From assembly GCA_028869315.1 (NCBI GenBank), contig JAGWSV010000241.1:1-42653 (forward strand): DNA of 42,653 bases, read 5' to 3'. This stretch comes from Rhodospirillales bacterium. GTDB lineage: Bacteria > Pseudomonadota > Alphaproteobacteria > Acetobacterales > Acetobacteraceae. The number at the start of each line of letters is the position of its first letter. The stretch's first letter is position 1. Shown piece by piece: positions 16,115 through 37,389 of the stretch. The notes under the pieces were generated by a model. The model was not told the origin of the DNA. It ran no database searches and saw nothing but the letters and a program-made list of their open reading frames with translations. Position numbers and translations under genes: made by a program.

Positions 16115-19100
16115 ATGACGAACACAGAACGTCTGTTATGTCAGCGTATTTATTATCTGCATCCTCTGTTGTGTGGAACGATCGCGGGATGGCCTGCGGA
16201 GCTTGATCGCTGTGCCGGAATGGGGTTCGATCACGTGCTGCTGGCACCCCCGTTCGCTCCTGGCCCAACCGGCAACCTGTTCCTGACAGCGGATTTGCGC
16301 GCGCCGCACGAGGCGCTTGGCTGGCCGAGCGATGCGACGGCGCTCGTTGGGCAGATCGCGGCGCTCTGCCGCGCTCGCGGGCTTGGGCTGCTCATCGATC
16401 TTGTCCTCGACAAGGTGGCCGATCAGGGCCCGCTCTGCGCTGCGCACCCGGCGCTGTTCGAGGCGCCGGACAGCCTGGCCGCGCTCGACCCGCGGGTCGC
16501 ACGGGGCGGGTTCGGCGCGATCCGGGCCCGCTGGGACGCCGCCGGGCCGGCAGCCGACCTCGCCGGGCTTTGGGCCAGCCACCTGCGCCTCTGGGCGGAG
16601 GCCGGGCTCGCCGGGGTTCGGATACTGGGGCTCGACGCGGTCCCCGCCACCAGCCTCCGCACCCTCATCGACGACGTCCGGCGGAAGACGCCCGGTTTTC
16701 GCTTCCTCGGCTGGACCCCAGGGCTGGCCGCACCGCGACTTGCCGCGCTGCGCGGCGCCGGGCTCGACCTCGTCTTTTCCTCCCTGCCCTGGTGGAATTT
16801 CCGCGACGGCTGGCTGTGGCAGGAGACGGCGTCGCTGCGCGAACTGGCCGGCGTGGCCGCGGCGCCCGAAGTGCCCTTCGGCCCCAGGCTGGCGGCGCAA
16901 TGGCACGACCCGGCCCTGCTGCGCGCCGGGTGCACGCGGGCGCTGGGCTGCGCCGCAATGCTGGGCGCCGCCTGGCTGATGCCGATGGGCTTCGAATACG
17001 GCACCAGCCGCCCCTTGCCGGTGGCGCATGGCCGGCCGCAGGACCTCGCCGCGATCCGCGAGGAAGCGCCGTTCGACCTCGGCGGCACCATCACCGCCGT
17101 GAACGACGCGCGCGGCCGGGCGGCCGGTTTCGGCGATGGCGACATGCGGCTGCTGACCGGCCCGGGCGCCGAGATGATCGCGCTGCTGCGCGCCGACAGC
17201 GCGGACGCACGCCGGGCCGGAGCCGCCTCGCTCGCGTTGCTCAACACGCATCTCACGGCGCCGCGCACGATGCGCGGCGCCGTGCTCCTGCCGGCCGCCG
17301 CCACCCCGCTCGCCGGGCTCCGCGACGGCGACAGCGCCGTCTCCCCGCTGGACGAAATCGAGGTCGCACCGGCGGCGTTGCGGATCCTGGAGGCGATCCC
17401 GGCGCTTGCGGTGCAACGCCCTGCGGAGGCGGCCGAGAAAGCCGCGCGAGCCGCCGCCGTCGCGCCGCGCATCGCCATCGAGGCGATCAGCCCGCGTGTG
17501 GATGGCGGCCCGTTTGCGGCCCGCCGGATAGTCGGCGAGGCCGTGACCATCGCAGCCGACCTGATCTGCGACGGGCACGGCATGCTTGCGGCGGTGGCCC
17601 TCTGGCGCGCCGCCGACGAAACCGCGTGGCAGGAGATGCCCATGCGCCCCGTCGGCAACGACCGCTGGCAGGCGGAGATCCCGCTCTGCCGCCTGGGCCC
17701 GCATGAATTCGCCGTCGAGGCCTGGTACGACGCCTTCGCGACCTTCCGTGACGAACTTGCCAAGAAGCATGCAGCCGGCCTCGCCCTGGGCCTGGAACTG
17801 GAGGAAGGCCGGCACCTGGTCGCGCAGGCGGCAGCGCGCAGCAAAGAGGACTTGCGTGCCGCGCTGGATGCCCTGCTGGCCCGGCTGGATCCGGCCGATG
17901 CCGACGCCGATCGCCGCCGCATGGCGCTGATGGACCCGGCCACGGCCCTGCTGATGCGCCAGGCCGACGACCGTCCGTTCCGTATTCGCTCCGACCCGCC
18001 GCATGGCATCGACGCCGAGCGCCCGACCGCCGGCTTCGCCAGCTGGTACGAGATGTTCCCGCGCTCGATGAGCGACGATCCCGATCGCCACGGCACGTTT
18101 GACGACGTCATCCGCCACCTGCCGCGCATCCGCGCCATGGGGTTCGACGTGCTCTATTTCCCGCCGATCCATCCGATCGGCCGGACCAACCGCAAGGGCC
18201 GCAACAACGTCGTCGTCGCCGCGGAAGGCGACCCCGGCAGCCCCTATGCGATCGGCGCCGAAGAAGGGGGGCACGACGCGCTGCATCCGGAGCTCGGCAC
18301 GCTGGACGATTTCCGCCGCCTGCGCGACGCCGCGGCCGCGCAGGGGCTGGAACTGGCGCTCGACTTCGCCATCCAGTGCGCGCCCGACCATCCATGGCTG
18401 CGCGCGCATCGGGACTGGTTCGATTGGCGGCCGGACGGCTCGCTGCGCTACGCGGAAAACCCGCCGAAGAAATACGAAGACATCGTCAACGTAGACTTCT
18501 ATGCGGCGGGCGCGGTCCCGTCGCTGTGGATCGCACTGCGCGACGTGGTGCTGTTCTGGCTGGCGGAAGGCGTCCGGCTGTTCCGCGTCGACAACCCGCA
18601 CACCAAGCCGTTGCCGTTCTGGCAATGGATGATCGCCGACGTGCGCCGCCGCGATCCCGGCGCGGTGTTCCTGTCGGAAGCCTTCACCCGCCCGAAGATG
18701 ATGTACCGGCTGGCGAAGGTCGGCTTCTCCCAGTCCTACACCTACTTCACCTGGCGCAACACGAAAGCCGAACTGCAGACCTACTTCGCCGAACTGGCCG
18801 CCGACCCGCTGCGGGAGTTCTTCCGCCCGCATCTTTTCGTCAACACCCCAGACATCAACCCATTTTTCCTGCAGCGATCCGGACGCGCCGGCTTCCTGAT
18901 CCGCGCGGCCCTGGCGACGACTCTTTCGGGTCTCTGGGGCATGTATTGCGGCTTCGAACTGTGCGAGGCCGCCGCGCTGCCGCATCGCGAAGAATATCTG
19001 GATTCGGAAAAGTACCAGATTCGCGCCTGGGACTGGAACCGGCCAGGCAACATCGTGGCGGAGATCACCCGGCTGAACCAGATCCGCCGCGACAACCCGG

Positions 19101-19405
19101 CGCTCCAGACCCATCTCGGGCTCACCTTCCACGCCGCCACCAATGACATGGTGCTGTTCTACGGCAAGGCCACCGCGGATCGCGGCAACGTCGTCATGGT
19201 CGCGGTCAGCCTGGACCCGGACAATGTACAGGAGACGGAGGTGGAAATCCCCCTTTGGGAATGGGGGCTCGCGGACACCGACGCGATCTGGGCCGAGGAT
19301 TTGATGGATGGGCGGGGATCCGTCCTGCGCGGCAAATGGCACCATCTGCGACTGGACCCGTCCGCGCGTCCGTTCGTGATCTGGCGCCTGGCCCCCCTGC
19401 CCTGA
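16115..19405 (+). CDS. glgE: Long-form GlgE: alpha-1,4-glucan:maltose-1-phosphate maltosyltransferase
   Basis: GlgE adds the maltosyl unit of maltose-1-phosphate to the non-reducing end of alpha-1,4-glucan. The core occupies about residues 450-1096: a DUF3416-type N-domain from [15 protein letters not shown], then a GH13 barrel starting near [13 protein letters not shown]. Catalytic residues are Asp826 in [10 protein letters not shown] (nucleophile), Glu855 in FLSEAFTRP (acid/base) and Asp913 in VNTPDINPF. Typical GlgE has about 650-700 residues; here another 450 precede it and resemble a decayed alpha-amylase barrel ([45 protein letters not shown]) without a catalytic set. The ATG at 16115 is preferred over the TTG at 16106, though no ribosome-binding site is clear. 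It is the first gene of the cluster; treS-mak follows after 20 bases. Confidence 0.93.
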
Positions 19406-19425
19406 AGGAAGCGACAGAGACACCC

Positions 19426-22738
<3,313 letters not shown>

Positions 22739-22746
<8 letters not shown>

Positions 22747-24922
22747 CCACGGTCTCGATCCCGCGGCGACCGAGTCGTTGGTGCACGGACGCCATCACGA
22801 TCCATTCGCCGTGCTCGGTCCGCACCCGTCAGGCTCGGGCCAGGTGGTGCGCAGCTTCCAGCCGGCCGCGGAACGGGTCGAACTGGTCGACCGCCACGCC
22901 GGCCAGGTGCTGGCGGAGCTGACCCGCGTCCATCCCGCCGGCCTGTTTGCTGCGCCCATGCCGGCCGACGTGCCCTATATGCTGCGGATCCACGACGGCA
23001 GCTTCGTGCGCGAGACCGAGGATCCGTACTCGTTCGGCCCCGTGCTCGGCGACCTCGACCTGCACCTGCTGGCCGAGGGGCGGCATCACGAACTCGGCCA
23101 GTGCCTTGGCGCCCACATGACCGAACATGAAGGCGTGCGCGGGGTACGCTTCGCGGTCTGGGCGCCGAATGCACGCCGGGTCTCGGTGGTGGGTACGTTC
23201 AACGCCTGGGACGGGCGGTGCCATCCCATGCGGCTGCGCCACGTATGCGGGGTGTGGGAGATCTTCATTCCCCGCGTGCTGCCGGGCACGCTCTACAAAT
23301 ACGAACTGATCGGCCCGGCTGGCGATCTGCTGCCGCAGAAGGCCGATCCGGTCGCCGCCGCCACCGAGGAACCGCCCGCAACCGCCTCGGTCGTCGCCAC
23401 GCCGTCCTGCATGACCTGGAGCGACGGCGCCTGGATCGCCGGGCGGGCGGCGCGGCAATCCGCGCCGGCGCCGATGTCGATCTACGAGGTGCACGCGCTA
23501 TCGTGGATCCGCGCGCACGAGCCCGGCCGCTGCGGCTGGGACGTGCTGACCGATCGGCTGGTTCCCTACGCCGCCGGCATGGGGTTCACCCATCTCGAAC
23601 TGCTGCCGATCATGGAGCATCCCTTCGCCGGCTCCTGGGGCTACCAGCCGCTTGGCCAGTTCGCGCCCACCGCGCGGCTCGGCCCGCCGGAGGCGTTCGC
23701 GCGCTTCGTCGACGGCTGCCACCAGGCCGGGCTCGGGGTCATCCTCGACTGGGTGCCGGCGCATTTCCCGAACGACGCGCACGGGCTGATCCGCTTCGAC
23801 GGCACGCCACTTTACGAGCACGCCGACCCGCGCGAGGGGTTCCACCCGGACTGGAACACCATGGTCTACAATCTCGGCCGCAACGAGGTGCGCGGCTTCC
23901 TGATCGGCAGCGCGCTGCACTGGCTGGAACGCTATCACGTCGACGGCCTGCGGGTAGATGCCGTCGCCTCCATGCTATACCGCGACTACAGCCGGCGCGC
24001 CGGGGAGTGGTTGCCCAACCGATACGGCGGGCGGGAGAACCTGGAAGCGATCGACTTCCTGCGCGAGCTGAGCCGAACGGTGGCCGGACGCTGCCCGGGC
24101 GCGCTGCTCATCGCCGAGGAATCCACCGCCTGGCCCGGTGTCACCCATGCGCCCGCCTCCGGCGGCCTGGGGTTCGATTTCAAATGGAATATGGGCTGGA
24201 TGCACGACACCCTGCGCTACATGAAGGAAGACCCGGTGCATCGCCGCTACCACCACGACGACATGACGTTCGGGCTGGTGTATGCATTTTCGGAACGTTT
24301 CGTGCTGCCGCTGTCGCATGACGAGGTGGTCTACGGCAAACGCTCCCTGCTCGGCCGCATGCCCGGCGACCGCTGGCAGCGCTTCGCCAACCTGCGCGCC
24401 TATCTCGGCTTCATGTGGTCGCATCCGGGCAAGAAACTGCTGTTCATGGGCGGCGAGTTCGCGCAGGAGGCGGAATGGAACCACGACGGCTCGCTGGAAT
24501 GGGACCGGCTCGACGACCCGGCGCATCGCGGCGTGCAGCATCTGGTGCGCGACCTCAACCACCTCTACGCCGCCACGCCCTCGCTGCATCGGCGTGACGC
24601 CGAGCAGGCCGGCTTCCGCTGGGTGGTGCTCGACGATCGGGCGCAGAGCGTGCTCGCCTGGCTGCGCTTCGGGGAGGCGGCGGACCCACCGATACTCGCG
24701 GTCTGCAACTTCACGCCGGTGCCACGCCACGGCTACCGGGTGGGCGTGCCGCAGGCCGGCCCCTGGCATGAGGTGCTGAACACCGATGCGGCGGCCTATG
24801 GCGGCGCCGGCATCGGCAATGGCGGCCGGGTGGTCGCGCACGAGACGCCGAGCCACGGCCTGCCGGCCGCGCTCGATCTCACCGTGCCGCCGCTCGCGAC
24901 CCTCATCCTGCGCGCCGGTTGA
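22739..24922 (+). CDS. glgB: 1,4-alpha-glucan branching enzyme
   Basis: GlgB cuts linear alpha-1,4 chains and re-attaches them by alpha-1,6 links. The 727-residue length is normal. An N-terminal module ([14 protein letters not shown]) is followed by a CBM48 domain ([18 protein letters not shown], then [11 protein letters not shown]) and a GH13 barrel ([22 protein letters not shown]). Catalytic residues are Asp407 in [17 protein letters not shown], Glu460 in [13 protein letters not shown] and Asp528 in [12 protein letters not shown]. The segment [19 protein letters not shown] is a hallmark of the branching enzyme. Its ATG lies inside the end of treS-mak, so the two are probably translated together. 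It branches the polymer made by GlgE. Confidence 0.96.
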
Positions 24923-24942
24923 GCCGGACAGGAGCGCCGCCC

Positions 24943-27081
24943 GTGCCCGCGCTGCCCGACACGCTGCTCCCTGGCCGGCCCGACCCGCTGGGTGCCACCT
25001 GGGATGGCCTGGGGGTGAACTTCGCGGTGTTTTCCGCCCATGCGGAAGCAATCGACCTGTGCCTGTTCCAGACCTCCGGGCGGCGGGAGATCGCCCGCTA
25101 CCGGCTTCCCGAGTGCACCGACGAGATCTGGCACGGCTATCTCCCGGAGGCGCTGCCAGGCTGCGTGTACGGCTATCGCGCGCATGGCCGCTACGCCCCG
25201 CGAAGCGGCCACCGGTTCAATCCCAACAAGCTGCTGCTCGATCCCTATGCGCGCGCGCTGGTTCGCGACCTGCACTGGACAGACGCGCTGTACGGCTACC
25301 GGATCGGCGCCACCCGGGGCGATCTTTCGTTCGACCGGCGCGACAGCGCCGCGGCGATGCCAAAAGCCGTCGTCACCACCGACCGGTTCGACTGGGGCGA
25401 CGACCGGCGACCCGACATCCCGTGGTCGGACACCGTCATCTACGAAGCGCATGTGCGCGGCCTCACCATGCGCCGCGACGACCTGCTGCCACCGAACCGC
25501 GGCACCTTCGCCGCGCTGGGCGACGCGCGGGTGATCGACCATCTGCGCCGGCTCGGCGTCACCGCGGTCGAACTGATGCCGGTGCAGGCCTACGCCCAGG
25601 ATCGGTTTCTGGTCGAAGCCGGGCTCACGAACTACTGGGGCTACTCCACCCTGGCGTTCTTCGCGCCGGAGCCGCGCTATCTCGGCCCCGGCGGGGCGGA
25701 TAGCCTGCGGATCGCGGTGCGCCGCCTGCACGCCGCCGGGATCGAAGTGATCCTCGACGTCGTCTACAACCACACCTGCGAGGGCAGCGAGCAGGGTCCG
25801 ACCCTCTCCTGGCGCGGGCTCGACAACGCCAGCTACTACCGGCTGGTGCCGGGCGATGAACGCCACCTGATCAACGACACCGGCTGCGGCAACACGCTCA
25901 ATCTCTCGCATCCACGCGTGCTGCAGATGGTCATGGACAGCCTGCGCTACTGGGCGACTTCGTTCCGGGTCGATGGATTCCGCTTCGATCTCGGTACGAC
26001 TCTCGGGCGCGAAGGGCCCGGATTCGATCCCGGATCGGGTTTCTTCGACGCGATCCGGCAGGACCCGGTGCTCTCGCGGCTCAAGCTGATCGCCGAACCC
26101 TGGGATGTCGGGCCGGGCGGCTATCACCTCGGCGACTTTCCGCCGGGTTTCGCCGAGTGGAACGATCGGTTTCGCGATACCACGCGGCGGTTCTGGCGTG
26201 GCGATGCGGGGCAGCGGGCCGAGTTGTCGGCGCGGCTGTCGGGCTCGGCGGACCTGTTCGGGCGCCGGCGCCGGCGGCCCTGGTCGTCGATCAACTTCGT
26301 CGCCGCGCATGACGGGTTCACCCTGCACGACGTGGTGAGCTACGCGCATCGCCACAACGAGGCCAATGGCGAGGACAACGCCGACGGACACGGCGACAAT
26401 TGCAGCAGCAACTGGGGGCTGGAGGGACCGAGCCACGAGCCAGCCGTGAACGCACTGCGCGAGCGGGTGAAGCGCGCCATGCTGGCGATCTTGCTGCTCT
26501 CCCACGGCACCCCGATGCTGCGCGCCGGCGACGAGATGGGCGGCACGCAGCAGGGCAACAACAACGCCTATTGCCAAGACAACGAAATATCCTGGATCGA
26601 CTGGCGTCGCGCGGAAACCGGGCCGGCGCGGCAGCTCGGCGCTTTCGTCGCGCGCCTGATCGCGCTGCGCCGGTCGCGGCCGATCCTGCACAGCGCCCGG
26701 TTCCTCCACGGCAAGAGCGAGCCGACCCCCGGCATCCTCGATATCGCATGGTTCGACGAGGACGGAAGGCGACTGTCGGAGGAGGCATGGAACGATCCCG
26801 AAGGACGCCGGCTGGTCCTCCGCCGCGCCGGGACGGCCGCGGATCCCGGCCAGGGGGTGGATGTCGTGCTGCTGCTGATCAACGGCTCTGAACACGACCA
26901 TGCCTTCGTCCTGCCCCCGCCGCCGCTCGGCTGGCACCTGCTGCTCGACACCGCGCGTCCGGAGCGGGACCCGACGACGATGCGGGGCGCCACGACCATG
27001 GTCGCCAGCCGCAGCGTGACCGTACTCGGCGCCACGGTTCCGCCCCCTGTCGTTCCCGCGTCCGCGGGACGGCCGGCATGA
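24943..27081 (+). CDS. glgX: Glycogen debranching enzyme (isoamylase type)
   Basis: GlgX hydrolyses alpha-1,6 branch points of phosphorylase- or exo-trimmed glucan. It has 712 residues from the GTG at 24943, chosen because GGAG lies eight bases before it; an in-frame TTG at 24919 would add eight residues and overlap glgB. An N-terminal CBM48 (GVNFAVFSAHAEAIDLCLF) precedes the GH13 barrel. Catalytic residues are Asp349 in GFRFDLGTTLGRE, Glu385 in LIAEPWDVGPGGY and Asp457 in AAHDGFTLHDVVSY. The phrases NYWGYSTLAFFAPEPRYL and NGEDNADGHGDNCSSNWG are diagnostic for GlgX/isoamylase. It ends with an ATGA overlap into treZ. It releases linear chains for MalQ and TreY. Confidence 0.95.
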   Translation: MPALPDTLLPGRPDPLGATWDGLGVNFAVFSAHAEAIDLCLFQTSGRREIARYRLPECTDEIWHGYLPEALPGCVYGYRAHGRYAPRSGHRFNPNKLLLDPYARALVRDLHWTDALYGYRIGATRGDLSFDRRDSAAAMPKAVVTTDRFDWGDDRRPDIPWSDTVIYEAHVRGLTMRRDDLLPPNRGTFAALGDARVIDHLRRLGVTAVELMPVQAYAQDRFLVEAGLTNYWGYSTLAFFAPEPRYLGPGGADSLRIAVRRLHAAGIEVILDVVYNHTCEGSEQGPTLSWRGLDNASYYRLVPGDERHLINDTGCGNTLNLSHPRVLQMVMDSLRYWATSFRVDGFRFDLGTTLGREGPGFDPGSGFFDAIRQDPVLSRLKLIAEPWDVGPGGYHLGDFPPGFAEWNDRFRDTTRRFWRGDAGQRAELSARLSGSADLFGRRRRRPWSSINFVAAHDGFTLHDVVSYAHRHNEANGEDNADGHGDNCSSNWGLEGPSHEPAVNALRERVKRAMLAILLLSHGTPMLRAGDEMGGTQQGNNNAYCQDNEISWIDWRRAETGPARQLGAFVARLIALRRSRPILHSARFLHGKSEPTPGILDIAWFDEDGRRLSEEAWNDPEGRRLVLRRAGTAADPGQGVDVVLLLINGSEHDHAFVLPPPPLGWHLLLDTARPERDPTTMRGATTMVASRSVTVLGATVPPPVVPASAGRPA

Positions 27082-28967
27082 CGGGCCGGTTCAGGCAGGA
27101 CCTGCCGTTCGGCGCCACCCTGCGGCCCGACGGCACCACGCGCTTCCGTCTCTGGGCCCCCTCGGCGCCGGACATCGTGCTGGAAGTGGACGGCCACCCG
27201 CCGATCGCGTTGCAGCGCGAGCCGAATGGTGCGGCGACGGCCATCGTCCGCTGCGGCGCCGGTAGCCGCTACCGCTACCGTCTGGCCGATGGGCGCGCGG
27301 TTCCCGATCCGGCCTCGCGCGCCCAGGCGAGCGGGGTCCATGGCGTCAGCGTCGTGGTGGATCCGCTCGCCTACGCCTGGCGCTTCCCCGATTGGCCGGG
27401 CCGTCCTTGGCACGAAACGGTTCTCTACGAGGTGCATGCCGGGCTGCTCGGCGGTTTCCGCGGCGTGATGGCGCAGTTGCCGCGGTTGCAGGCGCTGGGC
27501 GTGACCGCGGTGGAACTGATGCCGATCGCCGCCTGCCCTGGACGGCACAATTGGGGCTACGACGGCGTGCTGCCCTACGCCCCTGATGGCAGCCTCGGCA
27601 CGTTGGAAGAGCTGAAGGCGCTGGTGGACGCCGCGCACGGGCTCGGCCTGATGATGTTCCTCGATGTCGTCTATAACCATTTCGGACCCGACGGAAACCA
27701 CCTGAACGCGTACGCCGCCGCCTTCTTCCGGGCCGACGCGGCGACGCCCTGGGGCGAAGCGATCGACTTCCGCCAGGCCCCGGTGCGCGACTTCTTCGTC
27801 CACAACGCGCTCTACTGGATCAACGAATACCGGTTCGACGGGCTGCGCTTCGATGCCGTCCACGCCATCGGCCCGCCGGAGGCGCTGCCCGCGCTCGCCG
27901 CCGCCATCCGCGCAGCGATCCCGGCCGGACGACACGTCCATCTGGTGCTGGAGCATGACGGCAACCGCGCCGGCCTGCTGCGCGCAGGTCCCGCAACGGC
28001 GGGGTTCGACGCGCAATGGAACGACGACCTGCACCATTGCCTGCATCGGCTGCTCACCGGCGAGGCCAGCGGCTATTACGCCGATTATGCCGATCCGGCC
28101 GGCAAGCTCGCGCGCTGCCTCGCGGAGGGGTTCGCCTGGCAGGGCGACGCGTCGCCCTATCGCGACGGCGCGCCGCGCGGCGAGCCGAGCGCGCATCTGC
28201 CGCCGACCGCGTTCGTGGGCTTCTTGCAGAACCACGACCAGGTCGGCAACCGCGCCTTCGGGGAGCGCCTGACCCGACTTGCCGATCCGGCCGCACTGCA
28301 TGCCGCGCGGCTGCTGCTGCTGGCGCCCCAGGTGCCGCTTCTGTTCATGGGGGAGGAATGGGGCAGCACCACCCCGTTCCTCTATTTCACCGATCACGAG
28401 CCGGCCCTCGCCGCGCTGGTGCGGGAAGGCCGGCGGCGCGAATTCGCGCATTTTCCAGGCTTCGCCGATCCCGCGGCACGGGCGCGTATTCCCGATCCAA
28501 ACGATCCGGCCACGTTCCGGGCCTCGATCCCCGATCCGGTGGAAGCCGGCAGTCCCTCCGGTCGCGCGATCGCGGCCTTCACCCGGCATCTGCTGGCCCT
28601 GCGTCGCCAGTACGTGGTGCCGGGGTTGCCCGGCTGCCGCAGCCTGGGCGCCCACGCGGTCGGGCCGGGCGCGGTGCGCGCCGCCTGGCGGCTCGGCGAC
28701 GGGCGGGAGCTGACGCTCGTCGTCAACCTCGCCGCCTCCGCCGCTCAGCTGCTGCCTCCGCCCGGCGGCGTGCTGTGCGCATCTGCCCCGGGCGTCGCCG
28801 CTGCCGTGCAGGCCGGCGAACTCCCCGCCACCGCCGCGGCGGCCTTCCTGACCCCGCCCACGTCATCGGCCCCGCCGTCCACCGAAAGCCCGTCCGCCGA
28901 AAGCCCGTCCGCTGACGCCCGCGCTGGTGGCCGATCTCGCGGCCCCGGCACCATGGGGCACCGGTGA
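27078..28967 (+). CDS. treZ: Malto-oligosyltrehalose trehalohydrolase
   Basis: TreZ hydrolyses the bond that releases trehalose from maltooligosyl-trehalose made by TreY. Its 629 residues include an N-terminal beta-sandwich (FGATLRPDGTTRFRLWAPSA) and a GH13 barrel starting at HETVLYEVHAG. Catalytic residues are Asp259 in GLRFDAVHAIG, Glu292 in LVLEHDGNR and Asp387 in FLQNHDQVGNRAFG. FMGEEWGSTTPFLYFTDH is typical of TreZ. The last ~35 residues are a low-complexity tail (STESPSAESPSADA) encoded by a 15-bp repeat, and this tail runs into the malQ start. The ATG overlaps the glgX stop, and its own TGA overlaps the malQ GTG. Confidence 0.95.
   Translation: MTGRFRQDLPFGATLRPDGTTRFRLWAPSAPDIVLEVDGHPPIALQREPNGAATAIVRCGAGSRYRYRLADGRAVPDPASRAQASGVHGVSVVVDPLAYAWRFPDWPGRPWHETVLYEVHAGLLGGFRGVMAQLPRLQALGVTAVELMPIAACPGRHNWGYDGVLPYAPDGSLGTLEELKALVDAAHGLGLMMFLDVVYNHFGPDGNHLNAYAAAFFRADAATPWGEAIDFRQAPVRDFFVHNALYWINEYRFDGLRFDAVHAIGPPEALPALAAAIRAAIPAGRHVHLVLEHDGNRAGLLRAGPATAGFDAQWNDDLHHCLHRLLTGEASGYYADYADPAGKLARCLAEGFAWQGDASPYRDGAPRGEPSAHLPPTAFVGFLQNHDQVGNRAFGERLTRLADPAALHAARLLLLAPQVPLLFMGEEWGSTTPFLYFTDHEPALAALVREGRRREFAHFPGFADPAARARIPDPNDPATFRASIPDPVEAGSPSGRAIAAFTRHLLALRRQYVVPGLPGCRSLGAHAVGPGAVRAAWRLGDGRELTLVVNLAASAAQLLPPPGGVLCASAPGVAAAVQAGELPATAAAAFLTPPTSSAPPSTESPSAESPSADARAGGRSRGPGTMGHR
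28875..28916 (+). repeat. 15-bp tandem repeat in the treZ 3' end
   Basis: CCGTCCACCGAAAGC (28875-28889) and CCGTCCGCCGAAAGC (28890-28904) are followed by a partial third copy starting CCGTCCGCTGA. The repeat is in frame and adds Pro-Ser-Ala/Thr-Glu-Ser units to the tail of TreZ, so copy-number changes would keep the reading frame. Confidence 0.75.
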
Positions 28968-31036
28968 GCCCGCTCGCCCAGCTTGCCGGCGCAGCAGGCG
29001 TGGCAGTCCGTGCCCGCGATGCGTTCGGCACCGTGCATTCGGTCCCGCCCACCACCTTGCGGGCGGTGCTGGCGGCGCTGGGCCTGCCGGCCGAAACAAA
29101 AGCCGAGGTGGCGGACAGCCTGGCGGCGCTGCGCCGCCCCCCTGCCCTGCCGCCGCTGGTCACCGCCGAGGCCGGCCAGCCCGTCACGCTGCCGTCGCCC
29201 GCCGGCCGGTTCCGCCTGCAGCTGGAGTCCGGGGAAACGGCGGCGGGCATGCTGGCGGGCACGGCCAGCGGCGCCACGGCCCCGCCGGTGACCGAACCGG
29301 GCTACCACCGCCTGGAGACGCCGGCGGGGGAGACAATCCTCGCGGTCGCGCCGCCCCGCTGCTTCGGCCTGACGGACCTGGCCGCGGACGAACCGCCGCA
29401 CGGGAAGCGGCCCTGGGGCCTTTCGGTGCCGCTTTATGGACTGCGCCGGCCCGGCGACGGCGGCATCGGCGACTACACGGCGCTGGCGGCATTCGTCGCC
29501 GCGGCGGCCGCGCAAGGCGCCGCGGCGGTCGCGATCAGCCCGGTGCATGCACCCTTCGCGGCCGACCCGACGCGGTTCAGCCCGTATTCGCCGTCCAGCC
29601 GGGCGCTGTTGAACGGTCTCTATGCCGACCCGCAGCGTCTTCCGTTCGGCCTCGCGATGCCCGATCCGGGTCCCGACCTCGCCGCCGATCTCGCACGGCT
29701 CGAAGCGCGCGACCTGATCGACTGGCCGGCGGCAGTGGCGGCCCGGCTGCGCCGGCTGCGCGCGGCCTTCGCAGCCTTCGCCGCCGCGCCCCCGGAGGCG
29801 CTTGGACCCGCCCGGGCCGCCTTCGCCGCGTTTCGCGCCGCGCAGGGCAGGACGCTCGAACATCACGCGCGGTTCGAAGCGCTGCACGCGCATTTCCTGA
29901 CCCAGGACCCGTCATGCCGGCATTGGCGCGATTGGCCGCCGTCCTACCGCGACCCGGCCAGCCCGCACGTCGCGGCGTTCGCCCATGCCCATGCGGACGA
30001 GGTCGCCTTCCACGCCTTCCTGCAATTCCTGGCCGATGCCGGCCTCGGTGCAGCGCAAGCCACCGCGCGGAACGCCGGCATGAAGATCGGGCTGATGACG
30101 GATCTCGCTGTCGGCACAGACAGCGGCGGCAGCCAGGCATGGGCATGGCAGGCAGAGATGCTGGTGGGCCTCAGCGTCGGCGCGCCGCCCGACCCCTTGA
30201 GCCATGGCGGGCAGGACTGGGGGCTCGCCAGCCTCTCGCCCGCCGGCCTGCGTGCCAACGGCTTCGCCGGGTTCATCGAGATGCTGCGCGCCGCGCTGCG
30301 CCATGCCGGCGGGGTGCGGATCGACCACGTCATGGGCCTGCGCCGGTTGTGGGTGATCCCGGAGGGCGCGGCGCCGACCGAGGGCGCCTATCTGGCCTAC
30401 CCCGAGACCGACCTGCTGCGCCTGGTGGCGCTCGAATCCTGGCGGCATCGGGCGATCGTGCTGGGCGAGGATCTGGGCACCGTGCCGCCCGGCTTTCGCG
30501 CCGGTCTGCGCCGGGCCGGGCTGATGGGCCTGTCGGTGCTGATGTTCGAGCGCAACACGACCGGCTTCATTCCGCCCAAACGCTGGCGGCAGGACGCGGT
30601 GGCAATGACCTCGACCCACGACCTGCCCACCGTCTCCGGCTGGTGGCAGGAACGGGACATCGACTGGCGGGCCCGGCTGGGCCTGATCGATCCTGCCGCC
30701 GCGCGGCGCCAGCGCGCCGAACGCGCCACGGACCGGGCGGCACTCTGGACGGCGTTCGGCGCCAGCGGTGCCGCCTCCGGACCGCCGCCGGCCGCCACCG
30801 GCGGCGTCGCCGCAGCGGACGCGGCCTGCGCGCATCTCGGCGCAGCGGCCTCGGGGCTGGCGCTGCTGCCGGTCGAGGACGCGCTGGCGCTGGACGAGCA
30901 GCCGAACCTGCCCGGCACCATCGACGCGCATCCGAACTGGTGCCGCCGCCTGCCGGCTGCGGCGGATGCGGTGCTGGAGCCGCCGGCGGTGCGGCGGCGG
31001 CTCGCCGCCCTCGACGCCCGCCGGACCCGACGATGA
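28964..31036 (+). CDS. malQ: 4-alpha-glucanotransferase (amylomaltase)
   Basis: MalQ (GH77) transfers alpha-1,4-glucan segments between chains and to glucose or maltose. The 690-residue length fits the proteobacterial type with an N-terminal extension: a helical module (ARDAFGTVHSVPPTTLRAVLAALG), then the barrel starting at GLSVPLYGLRRPGDGGIGDY. Catalytic residues are Asp454 in GVRIDHVMGLRRLWVIPEG, Glu502 in VLGEDLGTVP and Asp553 in STHDLPTVSGWW. It starts at a GTG whose last two bases begin the TGA stop of treZ (GTGA), and its stop overlaps the treY ATG. It sits between treZ and treY, which are more often neighbours, and probably adjusts chain lengths for TreY. Confidence 0.94.
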   Translation: MSPLAQLAGAAGVAVRARDAFGTVHSVPPTTLRAVLAALGLPAETKAEVADSLAALRRPPALPPLVTAEAGQPVTLPSPAGRFRLQLESGETAAGMLAGTASGATAPPVTEPGYHRLETPAGETILAVAPPRCFGLTDLAADEPPHGKRPWGLSVPLYGLRRPGDGGIGDYTALAAFVAAAAAQGAAAVAISPVHAPFAADPTRFSPYSPSSRALLNGLYADPQRLPFGLAMPDPGPDLAADLARLEARDLIDWPAAVAARLRRLRAAFAAFAAAPPEALGPARAAFAAFRAAQGRTLEHHARFEALHAHFLTQDPSCRHWRDWPPSYRDPASPHVAAFAHAHADEVAFHAFLQFLADAGLGAAQATARNAGMKIGLMTDLAVGTDSGGSQAWAWQAEMLVGLSVGAPPDPLSHGGQDWGLASLSPAGLRANGFAGFIEMLRAALRHAGGVRIDHVMGLRRLWVIPEGAAPTEGAYLAYPETDLLRLVALESWRHRAIVLGEDLGTVPPGFRAGLRRAGLMGLSVLMFERNTTGFIPPKRWRQDAVAMTSTHDLPTVSGWWQERDIDWRARLGLIDPAAARRQRAERATDRAALWTAFGASGAASGPPPAATGGVAAADAACAHLGAAASGLALLPVEDALALDEQPNLPGTIDAHPNWCRRLPAAADAVLEPPAVRRRLAALDARRTRR

Positions 31037-33798
31037 GCGTGCCGCGCGCCACCGCGCGGTTACAATTCTACCGCGGCTTCACCCTGGACGACGCGGTCGC
31101 GATCGTTCCCTACCTGCATAGGCTCGGCATCAGCCATGTCTATGCCTCGCCGCTGTTCACCGCCCGCCCCGGCTCCACGCACGGCTATGACGTCATCGAT
31201 CCGAACGTGGTGAACCCGGAGCTTGGCGGGGAAGCCGCGCTGCGCCGCCTGGTTGCGGCCCTGCGGGCGCGCGGCATGGGATTGGTTCTTGATATCGTGC
31301 CCAACCACATGGCCGTCGGCGGGTCCGGCAACGTGTGGTGGCAGGACCTGCTGGAATGGGGCCGAGCCAGCCCCTATGCCGATTTCTTCGATATCGACTG
31401 GAACCCGGCTGCCGTCTTCCTGCGCGGCAAGCTGCTCGCCCCGTTCCTCGGCAAGCCCTACGGCATCTGCCTGGAAGCGGGCGAGATCACGCTGCGCTTC
31501 GATCCTGCCGACGGCCGCGTGTTTGCGGCCTATTACGACCACCGCTTTCCGCTGGCCCCCCGCGACTACCCGAAGGTGCTGGCGGGAGGTGGCGGCGCGC
31601 TGGCGGCCGCGGTGGCGCCCTTGGCCGCGCTTCCGGCCGGAGCGCGGGGTGCTCCTGCGGCGCGGGAGCGGGCGGCGGCGACGCGACGCAGGCTGACCGA
31701 TCCGGAACTGGCGCCGGCCGTTGCCGCGGCGCTGACCGCGTTCGCGCCGTGCCGGCCGGAGGGGCGCGCGCGCCTGCACGCGGTGCTGGAACGCCAAGCC
31801 TATCGCCTGGCGTGGTGGCGGGCCGCCGACGAAATCAACTGGCGCCGCTTCTTCGACATCACCGGCCTCGCCGGGTTGCGGGCGGAGCGGGCGGCGGTGT
31901 TCGCGGCAACCCATGAAGGCGTGCTGCGGCTCTACGCAGAGGGGCTGATCGACGGCGTGCGCATCGATCACGTGGACGGGCTGGCGGACCCTGGCGGCTA
32001 TTGCCGCCGCCTGCGCCGGCATCTGGCGGCCGCCGCCGCACGGCGGCCGCCCGGCTCGGACCACGCGCCGGCGCCGATCTGGGTGGAGAAGATCCTCGCC
32101 GCCGGGGAGCGCTTACCGCCCGGCTGGGACACCGACGGCACCACCGGCTACGACTTCATGGACCGGGTCTCCGCCGTGCTCCACGATCCGGCCGGGGTCG
32201 CGGCGCTGACGGCGACCTGGGTCGAAGCCTCCGGCCGTCCGCCGGGTTTCATCGAGGAGGTGGCCGCCGCGCGCCGCCAGATTCTGCGCGACAACCTCGC
32301 CGCAGAAGCGGAAGCGCTGGCCGTGGCGGTGCGGGCGATCGCGCTCCAGGACCCCGCCACGCGCGATTATGGGCTGGCCGCGATCCGACGGGTGCTGGAC
32401 GCCTTGCTCGCCCACTTTCCGGTCTATCGCATCTATGCCGGGCCGCGCGGTCCCGTTGCTGCCGATATCGGGGTGATGCGCCACGCCTGCGCCCTCGCGC
32501 GGGCCAGCCTGGGCGCCGCCGACCACGCCCTGCTCGGGCTGATCGGCGGCTGGCTCGGCGGCGACGGGCTGCGCGCCTTGCCGGCTTCCGTGCGGGCCGT
32601 GCGGCTGCGGGCCATGCTGCGGTTTCAGCACCTGACGGCGCCGGCGGTGGCGAAGTCGGTAGAGGACACCGCGTTCTATCGGTACGGTCGGCTGCTGTCG
32701 CGCAACGAAGTCGGCAGCGACCCCGAGACGGTCGCGTGCGGGCCGGAAGCGTTCCATGCCGACATGCGCGCGCGCCGCGCGCGCTGGCCACGGGCGCTGC
32801 TCGCCACCGCAACACACGACCAGAAGCGAGGCGAGGACACGCGGGCGCGGCTGGCGGTGTTGAGCGAACGGCCGGACCTCTGGGCGGATGCGCTGGGCCG
32901 CTGGATGCGGCATACGGCGGGGTGGCGCCACGGCGACGCGCCCGATCCCGCCGATGCCGCCATCCTGTTCCAGGCAATCCTGGGGGCCTGGCCTTTGGAT
33001 CTGTCCGCCGCCGACCCTGCCGGGCTGGCGCGGTTCGGCGCGCGCATGGCGGCCTGGCAGCAGAAGGCGCTGCGCGAAGCCAAGCGCCGATCGGGCTGGG
33101 GCCTGCCGGATGGCGGGTATGAAAGCGCCTGCCAGGGCTTTCTTGCCCGGCTTCTCGATCCCACCCGCTCGGATGGGCTCACGGAAGAGATCGCGGGGTT
33201 GGTCGCGCGCATCGCCCCGGCGGGGGCGCTGAACGGGTTGGCGCAGACGGCTTTGCGCCTGACGGTGCCGGGCATCCCGGATCTCTATCAGGGTACCGAG
33301 GTCTGGGATTTCAGCCTGGTCGACCCGGACAACCGCCGGCCGGTCGATTTCGGCGCGCTCGCATCCGCCCTGACGGGCGACCCAGCGCCGGACGCCCTGC
33401 TCCCACAGTGGCGGGACGGGCGGGTGAAGCAGGCGATGATCCGGCGCCTGCTGGGGATGCGCGCGCGTCTGCCCAGCCTGTTCGCCGCCGGCGCCTATCG
33501 TCCGCTGCTTGTGGTCGGCGCACGGGCGCAGCACGCGCTGGCCTTCGCGCGGATCGGCCGGGAGAGCGCGGCCGTGGTCGTGGTGAGCCGGCTGGCCGCG
33601 CTTCTCCCGGGCGTGGAACGGATGCCGCTGGTCGCACCGGAAGCCTGGGGCGACACCGAGGTGGTGCTGCCACGGCGCCTGCCGGCGGGCGAGGCGACCT
33701 GCGCCCTGACGGGCGCCCCGGTCCGGCTTGCGCAGCCGCGCCTGCGCCTCGGTGCGCTGCTCGCCGGGTTGCCGGTCGCGACGCTGGTGCTGCGCTGA
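31033..33798 (+). CDS. treY: Maltooligosyl trehalose synthase
   Basis: TreY converts the reducing-end alpha-1,4 bond of maltodextrins to the alpha-1,1 bond of trehalose. It has 921 residues, within the usual long range for the family. The N-terminus ATARLQFYRGFTLDDAVAIVPYL and SHVYASPLFTARPGSTHGYDV are diagnostic. Catalytic residues are Asp312 in GVRIDHVDGLADP, Glu352 in IWVEKILAAGE and Asp596 in TATHDQKRGEDTRARL. GIPDLYQGTEVWDFSLVDPDNRRPVDF near the C-terminus is also typical; only key residues of that region are cited. The ATG overlaps the malQ stop. It is the last gene of the cluster; an IS1380 remnant starts within about 20 bases of its stop. Confidence 0.95.
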   Translation: MSVPRATARLQFYRGFTLDDAVAIVPYLHRLGISHVYASPLFTARPGSTHGYDVIDPNVVNPELGGEAALRRLVAALRARGMGLVLDIVPNHMAVGGSGNVWWQDLLEWGRASPYADFFDIDWNPAAVFLRGKLLAPFLGKPYGICLEAGEITLRFDPADGRVFAAYYDHRFPLAPRDYPKVLAGGGGALAAAVAPLAALPAGARGAPAARERAAATRRRLTDPELAPAVAAALTAFAPCRPEGRARLHAVLERQAYRLAWWRAADEINWRRFFDITGLAGLRAERAAVFAATHEGVLRLYAEGLIDGVRIDHVDGLADPGGYCRRLRRHLAAAAARRPPGSDHAPAPIWVEKILAAGERLPPGWDTDGTTGYDFMDRVSAVLHDPAGVAALTATWVEASGRPPGFIEEVAAARRQILRDNLAAEAEALAVAVRAIALQDPATRDYGLAAIRRVLDALLAHFPVYRIYAGPRGPVAADIGVMRHACALARASLGAADHALLGLIGGWLGGDGLRALPASVRAVRLRAMLRFQHLTAPAVAKSVEDTAFYRYGRLLSRNEVGSDPETVACGPEAFHADMRARRARWPRALLATATHDQKRGEDTRARLAVLSERPDLWADALGRWMRHTAGWRHGDAPDPADAAILFQAILGAWPLDLSAADPAGLARFGARMAAWQQKALREAKRRSGWGLPDGGYESACQGFLARLLDPTRSDGLTEEIAGLVARIAPAGALNGLAQTALRLTVPGIPDLYQGTEVWDFSLVDPDNRRPVDFGALASALTGDPAPDALLPQWRDGRVKQAMIRRLLGMRARLPSLFAAGAYRPLLVVGARAQHALAFARIGRESAAVVVVSRLAALLPGVERMPLVAPEAWGDTEVVLPRRLPAGEATCALTGAPVRLAQPRLRLGALLAGLPVATLVLR

Positions 33799-34641: not shown

Positions 34642-35970
34642 ATGCCCGACAGTTTGCCCCTTGCGTCCTATGACCTGGCCGCCGCACTCCGCCGGTCCGA
34701 CCCAGCTCCGCCGGGACAGCCACCTGGTGGGAATCGCCCCGAGGTGTTTCTCTATTCCCACGACACATTTGGTCTAGGGCATCTGCGTCGCAACCTGGCG
34801 ATCGCCGGTCGGCTGCTCGCCCATGGCCGGTTTTCAGTACGCTTGCTGACCGGATCGCCGGTGATCGCGTCCTGGAGCCTGCCGCGTGGCCTCGATGTGC
34901 AGCCGCTGCCGCCGGTGGTGAAAGTGGCCGCCGAGACCTATGCCGCCCGCACCCCGGGCGAGCCGTTCGGGCTGGTGAAAGGCTATCGTGAGGCCTTGAT
35001 CCTGAGGCTGGTGCTCCGCCACCGCCCGGACGTGTTCCTGGTAGATCACGCCCCTTCCGGAATGAATGGGGAGCTGCTGTCGACCCTGGCGCTGATCCGA
35101 CGAGAAATGCCCGGTACCCGCACCATCCTCGGCCTGCGCGATATTCTCGACAGCCCTGCGATCGTGCGCGATCTCTGGAGCTCGCAGGATATCCACGCTC
35201 TGCTGGACCGCGCCTACGACGACATTTTCGTTTACGGCAGCCAACGGCTGTTCGACGTGGTAAACGGCTACGGCATGTCTCCCCGCGTTGCCGAACGCGT
35301 GCGCTATTGCGGTTACGTGGTGAATGCCGCCGGCGACGATGCCTCAGGCGAGGCCGATGGCGTCGCACGGCGCGCCGCGACACCTTGCTGGAACGCCGGC
35401 CGGGCGGGCGGGCGGCCGGTCGTGCTGGTGACAGCGGGGGGCGGTGGCGACGGTCATGCCATGATGGACGCCTACCTGCGGGCCCTGGCGGCACTGCCAG
35501 AGGGTCGATTCCATTCCGTCCTGGTGACGGGCCCCCTGATGCCTGGGGACGAGGCCGCCACGCTGCACCGCGCCGCCGCCGGTCGGAGCGACATCGAAGT
35601 GCTGGAGCGCACGACCGATCTGGTACCGAGCCTGCGGGCGGCCGACCTCGTCGTCTCGATGGCCGGCTACAACACCAGCGTTGAACTCATCGCGGCGCGC
35701 AAACGGGCCATCCTGGTGCCGCGCGCGGCACCGCGCGCCGAGCAGCGGATGCGCGCCGCGCTGCTGTCCAAGCTTGGCCTCATGCACGTCGCCCATCATG
35801 GACCGCGGCTCGCTGAGCAGTTGGCCGCCTTGCTGCCCGCCGCGTTGGCCGCGCCGGCCGTGCGGCCGGAAGCGTGGGACACGCTCGATCTGCGCGGCAC
35901 GGACCGGGTCGCGGAGCATCTGCAGACCTGCGTTGCCAGCCGGAGCGCGTCTCTGGAGCCGGCGGCATGA
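34642..35970 (+). CDS. MurG/GT28-like glycosyltransferase
   Basis: This 442-residue protein has the GT-B fold of MurG-like (GT28) enzymes, which use nucleotide sugars. The N-terminal domain has the glycine-rich acceptor loop YSHDTFGLGHLRRNLAIA (38-55). The C-terminal domain has VLVTAGGGGDGHAMM and the donor-binding SMAGYNTSVELIAARKRAILVP from about residue 339. GGAGG lies five bases before the ATG, the best ribosome-binding site of the operon. It heads a set of overlapping genes (two GT4 enzymes, an ABC exporter, an outer-membrane protein). The first 30 residues are Pro-rich and probably disordered. Donor and acceptor cannot be deduced. It is a soluble or membrane-associated cytoplasmic enzyme by prediction. 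Confidence 0.82.
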   Translation: MPDSLPLASYDLAAALRRSDPAPPGQPPGGNRPEVFLYSHDTFGLGHLRRNLAIAGRLLAHGRFSVRLLTGSPVIASWSLPRGLDVQPLPPVVKVAAETYAARTPGEPFGLVKGYREALILRLVLRHRPDVFLVDHAPSGMNGELLSTLALIRREMPGTRTILGLRDILDSPAIVRDLWSSQDIHALLDRAYDDIFVYGSQRLFDVVNGYGMSPRVAERVRYCGYVVNAAGDDASGEADGVARRAATPCWNAGRAGGRPVVLVTAGGGGDGHAMMDAYLRALAALPEGRFHSVLVTGPLMPGDEAATLHRAAAGRSDIEVLERTTDLVPSLRAADLVVSMAGYNTSVELIAARKRAILVPRAAPRAEQRMRAALLSKLGLMHVAHHGPRLAEQLAALLPAALAAPAVRPEAWDTLDLRGTDRVAEHLQTCVASRSASLEPAA

Positions 35971-37379
35971 CCGGGTCTGGTGCGGGGATGCCTGGTCGCG
36001 GAACGGGTACCGCAGAGATGACCGACGCGACGGTCGCGCCGCCGGCGGAGCCGGTGGCCTATGTGATGAAGCGGTACCCCCGCCTCACCGAAACGTTCAT
36101 CCTGAACGAGATCCGCGCGATGGAGCGGCTCGGCGCACGGTTGCACATCTTCTCGCTGTTGGCGCCGGAACCGCCACCGCACCACCCGATGGCGGCCGAG
36201 GTGACGGCGCCGCTTCATTCGCCGCCGCAAGCCGGCTGGGCGAAATTCACGGGGCTGGCGCGGGCGCACGCGGCGGCCCTGGCTGCCGCGCCGCTGCGCT
36301 ATCTCGGGGCCGTTGGGCGGGCGATGGTGTTCTCGGCGCTCTCGCCCACGCCGATGTCGGTGTGGAAGCAGTTCGGCCGCGCCGGCTTCGTCGCCACCAC
36401 ATGCCGCCGCGCGGGAATTCGGCACATCCACGCGCATTTCGCCAACGCGCCGGCGGCGGTGGCCCGGTTCGCCAGCATGATGTCCGGCATCCCGTTCAGC
36501 TTCACGGCGCATGCCAAGGACCTTTATCTCACGCCGAAACGCGTGATCCAGCGGCGCGCCGGGGCGGCCACCTTCGTCGCGACCTGCACCGGCTACAACG
36601 CCCAATACCTGCGCGACCTCGTCGGACTGGAGCAAGCCGACAAGATCCACCTCGTCTATCACGGCATCGATCTCGGCCTATTCACACCACGGTCCGCTCC
36701 GGCTGCCGTCCCGGGCCGCAGGAAAGACCATGTGCCGCTGATCCTGACGGTCGGACGGCTGGTGCCGAAGAAGGGGCATGACGACCTGATCGCCGCACTG
36801 GCGCGGCTGCGCGACCGCGGCGTTGCGTTCCGCTGCCGGATCGTCGGCGCCGGGCCGCTGCAACATGAGCTTGCGGCTGAGATTACCCGGCATGGGCTCG
36901 GCGAAACCGTCACCCTGGAGGGGCCGATGACGCATGCGCGCCTGATCGGCCTTTATCGCGAGGCCGACCTGTTTGCGCTGGCGCCTCGGATCGCCGATGA
37001 CGGCGACCGCGACGGCATCCCCAACGTGATCGCCGAGGCGATGGCGATCGGCGTTCCGGTCGTATCCACCGATGTCTCCGGCATTCCGGAATTGGTCCGC
37101 AACGACGACACCGGCCTGGTCGTGCCGCCGCGCGACCCCGAGGCCCTGGCCGGGGCGTTGGCGCGCCTGTTGGCGAACCCGTCTCTGGCCGCAAGGTTCG
37201 CCGCGCGCGCGCGGGCGCGGCTGGAGGAAGAATTCGATCTGTGGACCACCACCCGTCGCCTGCACACACTGATGGAGGGCGACGCCTGCTGCGCCGGCGT
37301 GCATGGCGAGCAGACGAACCCGTTCGTCCGCCCGGCCCCGTCCTGGCGACGGGCCGAGGCCGTGCAGGCGGGCGATTGA
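35967..37379 (+). CDS. GT4 glycosyltransferase (WcaL/colanic-acid-like)
   Basis: This 470-residue GT-B enzyme resembles the WcaL/AmsK branch of family GT4, which builds exopolysaccharide repeat units. Typical phrases are YVMKRYPRLTETFILNEIRAMERLG near the N-terminus (key residues only), HAHFANAP (155-162), FTAHAKDLY, YHGIDL and LTVGRLVPKKGHDDLI. The donor-site stretch GIPNVIAEAMAIGVPVVST includes Glu357 of the E-x7-E type motif. The start overlaps the preceding stop (ATGA), so it is translationally coupled; an ATG at 36018 closer to the conserved domain is an alternative. The last ~30 residues, after the final helix, are probably disordered. Confidence 0.88.
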   Translation: MTGSGAGMPGRGTGTAEMTDATVAPPAEPVAYVMKRYPRLTETFILNEIRAMERLGARLHIFSLLAPEPPPHHPMAAEVTAPLHSPPQAGWAKFTGLARAHAAALAAAPLRYLGAVGRAMVFSALSPTPMSVWKQFGRAGFVATTCRRAGIRHIHAHFANAPAAVARFASMMSGIPFSFTAHAKDLYLTPKRVIQRRAGAATFVATCTGYNAQYLRDLVGLEQADKIHLVYHGIDLGLFTPRSAPAAVPGRRKDHVPLILTVGRLVPKKGHDDLIAALARLRDRGVAFRCRIVGAGPLQHELAAEITRHGLGETVTLEGPMTHARLIGLYREADLFALAPRIADDGDRDGIPNVIAEAMAIGVPVVSTDVSGIPELVRNDDTGLVVPPRDPEALAGALARLLANPSLAARFAARARARLEEEFDLWTTTRRLHTLMEGDACCAGVHGEQTNPFVRPAPSWRRAEAVQAGD

Positions 37380-37389
37380 GCACGGTCGG

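What the first reader, a model, noticed from the sequence alone, without database searches (positions are those of the whole stretch)
16115..17460. GlgE carries a ~450-residue degenerate amylase-like N-terminal half
Seen: the enzyme has 1096 residues while the GlgE core needs about 650. The extra half shows barrel-like landmarks ([40 protein letters not shown]). The usual acid/base glutamate strand is replaced by FRFLGWTPG and no final NHD-type motif is seen. Inference: it is a pseudo-enzyme barrel that may bind glucan, hold the dimer or regulate GlgE. Long GlgE forms may exist elsewhere in proteobacteria, but I know of no assigned role for this half.
Basis: partly seen in the sequence, partly recalled or inferred. 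Interest (0 to 1): 0.6.

Follow-up and report, generated by a model that had tools for sequence, protein, structure and literature searches.

The report
Dead amylase barrel fused to GlgE
The first 450 residues of this bacterial glycogen-building enzyme (GlgE) are a complete but catalytically dead copy of a second sugar-cutting enzyme, whose intact relatives work elsewhere as separate proteins; the dead copy has been kept by selection across many Proteobacteria, probably to hold the glucan chain or the protein assembly.

Summary
Confirmed and extended. The ORF at 16115-19405 encodes a 1096-residue GlgE; Pfam's GlgE N/S domain starts at residue 451, and the core keeps its triad. Residues 11-450 are predicted with high confidence (pLDDT 89, pTM 0.89) as a whole GH13 barrel plus a C sandwich, best matched by GlgE crystal structures. 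All three catalytic positions are lost (nucleophile to L171, acid/base to W200, stabiliser to F255). New here: (1) the domain is a degenerate branch of a distinct GH13 lineage, sister to the GlgE barrel. In relatives it is intact (D/E/D), fused to GlgE or stand-alone; stand-alone genes sit beside glgA or treZ-treY, and all 20 extra ones checked are intact. (2) In trees of both halves the pseudo forms make one clade across alpha-, beta- and gammaproteobacteria, with no short GlgE inside among those sampled. (3) The dead half is under purifying selection (dN/dS 0.08-0.38), and Trp replaces the acid/base Glu in 52 of 62 sequences that are only about 30% identical. Long GlgEs are common in databases, but I found no paper describing this half. 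The role (glucan holding or scaffold) is inferred and untested.

The parts
16115..19405 (+). long GlgE (alpha-1,4-glucan:maltose-1-phosphate maltosyltransferase), 1096 aa
16145..17464 (+). non-catalytic GH13-type (beta/alpha)8 barrel plus C-domain sandwich (residues 11-450)
   Evidence: model pLDDT 89.4, pTM 0.89; Foldseek to GlgE 4u33 E 1.4e-21; VIA Z 33-34 to 3dhu, 3zss, 4u33
16613..16645 (+). beta4 motif [11 protein letters not shown] (167-177): nucleophile position 171 is Leu (Asp in intact relatives, GFRCDAA)
16697..16723 (+). beta5 motif FRFLGWTPG (195-203): acid/base position 200 is Trp (Glu in intact relatives, AETLGC)
   Evidence: W in 52 of 62 pseudo sequences, E in all intact
16778..16825 (+). 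beta6 motif [16 protein letters not shown] (222-237), most conserved part of the dead half; S222 replaces N, E237 replaces Q
16865..16891 (+). beta7 motif PEVPFGPRL (251-259): P254-F255 replace the His-Asp (TS stabiliser) of PESHDTxRL
17465..19402 (+). GlgE core (domain N/S 451-636, catalytic barrel, C domain); triad D826, E855, D913 present
   Evidence: Pfam; these three columns are invariant in 46 aligned long GlgEs
19426..22746 (+). TreS-maltokinase fusion, next gene
   Evidence: Pfam; ORF; start chosen by inspection
22739..24922 (+). GlgB branching enzyme
   Evidence: Pfam
24919..27081 (+). GH13 with CBM48, GlgX-type debranching enzyme
   Evidence: Pfam; named by resemblance and operon context
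27078..28967 (+). GH13 plus DUF3459, TreZ-type
   Evidence: Pfam; named by resemblance and operon context
28964..31036 (+). MalQ (GH77)
   Evidence: Pfam
31033..33798 (+). TreY-type GH13
   Evidence: Pfam Alpha-amylase in this frame; start approximate

Best explanation
The first 450 residues are a pseudoenzyme domain. A separate GH13 glucan enzyme, sister to the GlgE barrel and found beside glgA or treZ-treY in other bacteria, also occurs fused in front of GlgE; in one proteobacterial lineage the fused copy lost its catalytic residues while keeping the whole fold (shown by alignment, fold prediction and trees; which arrangement came first is not settled). It no longer makes or breaks glycosidic bonds (inferred from loss of all three carboxylates). 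It is kept because the GlgE core depends on it (inferred). My preferred mechanism, inferred only, is that the former active-site mouth, now carrying Trp/Phe instead of Glu/Asp, works as a built-in glucan holder (or, hard to tell apart by genetics alone, as an assembly scaffold) that keeps the growing alpha-glucan near the maltosyltransferase site, the job that surface sites on domain C are proposed to do in actinobacterial GlgE.
For: Fold. Triad lost in the window and in the pseudo clade, intact in relatives. Distinct GH13 lineage sister to GlgE, pseudo forms nested inside intact ones: (100/99 and 100/100 support). One pseudo clade in the tree of N-halves (65 rows, SH-aLRT 97) and in the tree of cores (40 rows, 99, no short GlgE inside). 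Purifying selection on the dead half: dN/dS 0.08-0.38 in 21 close pairs (most of them within the pseudo clade), window vs L016 0.32 (core 0.21). Trp at the acid/base position in 52 of 62 sequences whose median pairwise identity is 30%. Of 100 columns fixed in intact forms, 12 switched to a new common residue in pseudo forms, 8 of them on the active-site rim (P 0.008). Precedents: secondary glucan sites of GlgE (PMC5076824) and non-catalytic functions of plant isoamylases ISA1 and ISA2 (PMC12510319, title and start of abstract seen).
Against: No binding, oligomer or activity data. As a whole the active-site rim is not clearly more conserved than the rest of the pseudo barrel (25 of 323 circular shifts reach the observed difference): only the beta5-beta6 side is, while beta4 and beta7 have drifted, and several lineages (L026, L028, L080, L083, L112) have deletions in this half. 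This fits a scaffold at least as well as a glucan pocket. The linker (438-450) is predicted with pLDDT under 50, so the placement of the half on the core is unknown. Short GlgEs work without it.
Confidence: 0.6

Rival explanations
1. Pure scaffold: the dead barrel folds against the GlgE core and stabilises it or its dimer, and sugar binding plays no part.
For: Fold-bearing residues are the best conserved; beta4/beta7 rims and nucleophile position drift; no short GlgE inside the pseudo clade, as expected if the core now needs the domain.
Against: Switched-and-fixed residues cluster on the former active-site mouth (8 of 12, P 0.008), with Trp fixed in place of the catalytic Glu.
Confidence: 0.3
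2. Sensor or regulator: the former active site binds a small sugar or sugar phosphate (trehalose, maltose, maltose 1-phosphate) and changes GlgE activity.
For: The half is encoded in a trehalose/glucan operon; beta5-beta6 side of the pocket conserved.
Against: No direct evidence; the pocket is eroded at beta4 and beta7 and in several lineages; the S. coelicolor authors saw no sign of allosteric control by carbohydrates in their short GlgE (PMC5076824).
Confidence: 0.15
3. Drifting leftover: a fused enzyme that lost its job and is tolerated, with no present function.
For: The N-half evolves about twice as fast as the core and shows deletions in some lineages.
Against: dN/dS well below 1 in all 21 pairs tested; the whole fold is kept at about 30% identity; not lost in any of the 40 pseudo-clade proteins in the core tree (sampling partly selected for the domain); Trp200 kept in 52 of 62.
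Confidence: 0.07
4. The half still has an unusual catalytic activity using other residues.
For: Complete barrel fold; new conserved E237, D125, R127, R275 in the pseudo clade.
Against: None of these takes the place of the GH13 nucleophile, acid/base or stabiliser in the alignment; E237 lies within a predicted helix (233-242).
Confidence: 0.03

Closest known systems
GlgE, GH13_3 (S. coelicolor 3zss, M. tuberculosis 4u33)
   Same: The C-terminal 646 residues are GlgE with its triad; the N-half has the same A+C domain fold (VIA Z 33-34) and its nearest tested neighbour in the GH13 tree is the GlgE barrel.
   Different: The solved GlgEs have five domains and no extra barrel; the N-half lacks domains N and S and all catalytic residues.
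Stand-alone, triad-intact GH13 proteins of about 420-440 aa next to glgA or treZ-treY (e.g. L146, L157); only generic GH13 hits in Pfam and NCBIfam
   Same: Same lineage as the N-half (tree).
   Different: Catalytic triad D/E/D intact; separate gene.
Plant isoamylase 2 (ISA2), with non-catalytic functions in glucan structure (PMC12510319)
   Same: GH13 protein with a non-catalytic role in alpha-glucan synthesis (ISA2 as catalytically dead: general knowledge).
   Different: Separate polypeptide of a debranching-enzyme complex (general knowledge), not fused to GlgE, different GH13 branch.
GlgA-GlgB fusion of Waddlia/Criblamydiaceae (PMC7935935, PMC11046441)
   Same: Bacterial fusion in which the GH13 half is reported inactive.
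   Different: Different enzymes; inactivity is put down to the fusion itself, not to loss of the triad across a large clade.
L. plantarum alpha-amylase 3dhu and T. neapolitana AmyB 4gkl
   Same: Closest solved sequences to the intact stand-alone form (E 2.5e-19 and 3.8e-16) and close in fold to the dead half.
   Different: Named as alpha-amylases in the PDB; other lineages, not fused to GlgE.

Membership tests
GlgE (GH13_3 maltosyltransferase), residues 451-1096 | PF11896 domain N/S followed by GH13 barrel and GLGE_C | tested here: met
   5.7e-52, 1.4e-09, 2e-14
GlgE (GH13_3 maltosyltransferase), residues 451-1096 | Catalytic Asp nucleophile, Glu acid/base, second Asp | tested here: met
   D826, E855, D913 invariant in 46 long GlgEs; motifs located
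GlgE (GH13_3 maltosyltransferase), residues 451-1096 | Maltosyl transfer from maltose 1-phosphate | not testable with these tools
   needs enzyme assay
GH13 clan fold, residues 11-450 | (beta/alpha)8 barrel plus C-terminal sandwich | tested here: met
Catalytically competent GH13 enzyme, residues 11-450 | Asp (beta4), Glu (beta5), Asp (beta7) | tested here: not met
   L171, W200, F255
glgA/treZ-linked GH13 lineage (sister to GlgE barrel), residues 11-450 | Falls inside the lineage in a rooted tree | tested here: met
   N-halves together 100/99, pseudo forms 100/100 inside; the short internal branches among intact forms are unresolved
GlgE duplicate (recent internal duplication) | N-half nested among GlgE barrels | tested here: not met
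   GlgE barrels form their own clade 100/100, N-halves another
Carbohydrate-binding module (known CBM family) | Match to a CBM profile | tested here: inconclusive
   No CBM hit in Pfam at E up to 1, but glucan binding itself was not tested

The most novel reading that the evidence does not exclude
A former GH13 active site was rebuilt into a glucan-holding site by fixing aromatic residues (Trp200, Phe255) in place of the catalytic carboxylates, giving proteobacterial GlgE a built-in, barrel-sized carbohydrate-binding module that sets which chains it extends; the ancestor was a free glgA/treZ-linked GH13 enzyme.
Probability: 0.4. Interest if true: 0.68.

Novelty: new variant of a known kind. 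Interest (0 to 1): 0.5.

Why it matters
GlgE has been studied structurally as a five-domain enzyme, mainly from actinobacteria, where it is a drug target. A large part of proteobacterial GlgEs (25 of 40 in the class-wide sample, counted by reading the list) carry a second barrel that annotation passes over as 'maltotransferase domain-containing protein'. The set holds intact, partly lost and dead versions and free relatives, so it is a natural series for testing how an enzyme becomes a non-catalytic partner. It also points to an unassigned active GH13 lineage tied to glgA and treZ-treY, whose role in glycogen and trehalose metabolism can be tested by gene removal.

Tried and rejected
Internal duplication of the GlgE barrel: suggested by blastp of L018's N-half to the GlgE core and by the profile's second hits, rejected because GlgE barrels and N-halves form separate clades. 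Intact triad hidden in the window copy: rejected by alignment to intact relatives. Pocket conserved as a whole: not supported (25 of 323 shifts); only the beta5-beta6 side. Sequence-only recognition by Pfam/NCBIfam/PDB was too weak to decide. First genome-contig query with the broad alignment failed for lack of conserved stretches. Literature searches for long GlgE or its extra half found no description in the held library; subscription papers are not covered. Four plasmid-derived rows were not accepted for structure prediction and were left out. L071 looked like a stand-alone gene but is followed at once by GlgE pieces in other frames, so it is treated as a broken or mis-assembled fusion.

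Full report
OBSERVATION. The open frame 16115-19405 codes for 1096 residues. All named motifs are present. By sequence alone the extra half is barely recognisable: Pfam Alpha-amylase E 0.43, amylosucrase E 0.0023 in the PDB.

FOLD. AlphaFold2 on residues 11-450 with 14 aligned sequences gave mean pLDDT 89.4 and pTM 0.89, with eight barrel strands and a C-terminal sandwich. The best Foldseek matches are GlgE crystal structures (4u33, E 1.4e-21); VIA-align gives Z 34.0 with alpha-amylase 3dhu and 33.7 with GlgE 3zss over 372-388 residues. The full-length model (pLDDT 82.8, pTM 0.78) keeps this fold but has a low-confidence linker at 438-450, so the arrangement of the two halves is not known.

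CATALYTIC RESIDUES. Relatives show what was lost. Intact N-halves read INHT / GFRCDAAYQVP / AETLGCT / PESHDTxRL; the window reads LDKV / [11 protein letters not shown] / GWTPGLA / PEVPFGPRL. The nucleophile Asp is Leu171, the acid/base Glu is Trp200, and the His-Asp pair with the transition-state stabiliser is Pro254-Phe255. The GlgE core keeps D826, E855 and D913.

DISTRIBUTION. Long GlgEs are frequent: in the class-wide sample of 387 genomes I count 25 long against 15 short GlgEs (my reading of the list). Named carriers include Acetobacteraceae (Acidisphaera, Acidisoma), Luteibacter, Nevskia, Vineibacter, Bordetella, Achromobacter, Burkholderia, and on plasmids Azospirillum (intact), Rhizobium and Caballeronia. 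RefSeq calls many of them 'maltotransferase domain-containing protein'. The closest named relatives of the window are Acetobacteraceae and other alphaproteobacterial MAGs, which suggests the window's family.

STAND-ALONE RELATIVES. The same domain exists as a free protein of about 420-440 residues. In one order outside the window's class, 40 of 151 genomes carry it; in 15 of 16 regions examined it lies near glgA, a GT5 glycogen synthase, on the same strand. In the family of G153 it lies directly before treZ and treY in four genomes (G153, G303, G920, G923). G153 and G303 have a separate short GlgE on other contigs, and no GlgE was found in G743. All 20 additional stand-alone proteins examined keep D/E/D. 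No dead stand-alone form was seen: the dead forms found are fused to GlgE (two truncated contigs, L110 and L118, and the distant stand-alone L081, which lacks the stabiliser, are set aside).

EVOLUTION. In a rooted GH13 tree the N-halves form one group (100/99) beside the GlgE barrels (100/100), and the dead forms nest among the intact ones (100/100); so the half is neither a recent copy of the GlgE barrel nor a generic amylase. In a larger tree, 65 degenerate N-halves form one clade (97) and the intact ones another (95, with one partly degenerate member). In the tree of GlgE cores, 40 of the 42 long degenerate proteins form one clade (99) with no short GlgE inside; the other two (L027, L082) lie apart, so loss of residues happened more than once. 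Whether stand-alone or fused came first is not resolved.

SELECTION. Nei-Gojobori dN/dS for 21 close pairs (most of them within the pseudo clade) is 0.08-0.38 in the N-half, in most pairs about one and a half to three times that of the core, never near 1. Median identity among 62 dead N-halves (80% redundancy cut) is 30%, yet Trp200 is kept in 52 of 62, P202 in 51, S222 in 51 and E237 in 61, while intact forms have E, L, N and Q in all 12. Of 100 columns fixed in intact forms, 42 keep the residue, 46 are relaxed and 12 have switched to a new common residue; 8 of these 12 lie on the rim of the former active site, which holds 31 of the 100 columns (P 0.008; rim taken from the predicted strands, cut-offs chosen by me). 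Against a simple pocket: the rim as a whole is not clearly more conserved than the rest (25 of 323 circular shifts as high), only the beta5 and beta6 segments are, and several lineages have deletions in this half.

MECHANISM. Shown: fold (predicted), loss of triad, ancestry, selection. Inferred: no glycoside chemistry; present role. I prefer a glucan-holding module made from the old active-site mouth (Trp/Phe instead of Glu/Asp), in line with secondary glucan sites on domain C of actinobacterial GlgE, where disruption slows extension of polymers (PMC5076824), but a plain scaffold is nearly as likely. The operon glgE - treS/mak - glgB - glgX - treZ - malQ - treY, in which neighbouring genes lie within about 20 bases of each other or overlap, makes any effect on glucan elongation or turnover fit.

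KNOWN OR NEW. Non-catalytic GH13 proteins are known (ISA2, PMC12510319), and long GlgEs are in databases without comment. I found no paper on this half in the held library, which lacks most subscription journals. I therefore call it a new variant of a known kind.

Noticed in passing
L146, L198-L213 (near glgA); L157, L158, L214, L217 (before treZ-treY): A stand-alone, triad-intact GH13 protein of about 420-440 aa without assigned function is coupled to glgA or to treZ-treY; 40 of 151 genomes of one order carry it.
   Followed up: partly
L071 5595-9199: N-half and GlgE core of one genome lie in three different frames, a frameshifted gene or an assembly error.
   Followed up: partly
L112, L121, L083, L080, L026, L028: In some lineages the dead half has large deletions or is hardly recognisable, as if eroding further.
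   Followed up: partly
window 16136-19432 and 19159-22740, minus strand: Open frames of 1098 and 1193 aa antisense to glgE and treS/mak, most likely a by-product of high G+C coding DNA.
   Followed up: no
window 34642-40769: Three glycosyltransferase genes and an ABC transporter (membrane plus ATPase) follow the glucan operon on the same strand; possibly glycan assembly or export.
   Followed up: no
L027 (G037): A separate, apparently independent decay: nucleophile Asp to Asn, beta3 loop deleted, but acid/base Glu and His-Asp still present; its sister L060 is intact.
   Followed up: partly
L101, L102 (Acidisoma), L024, L059, L061 and Bordetella rows: Dead forms that still have Asp at the nucleophile position while acid/base and stabiliser are gone; could be retention or reversal.
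   Followed up: no
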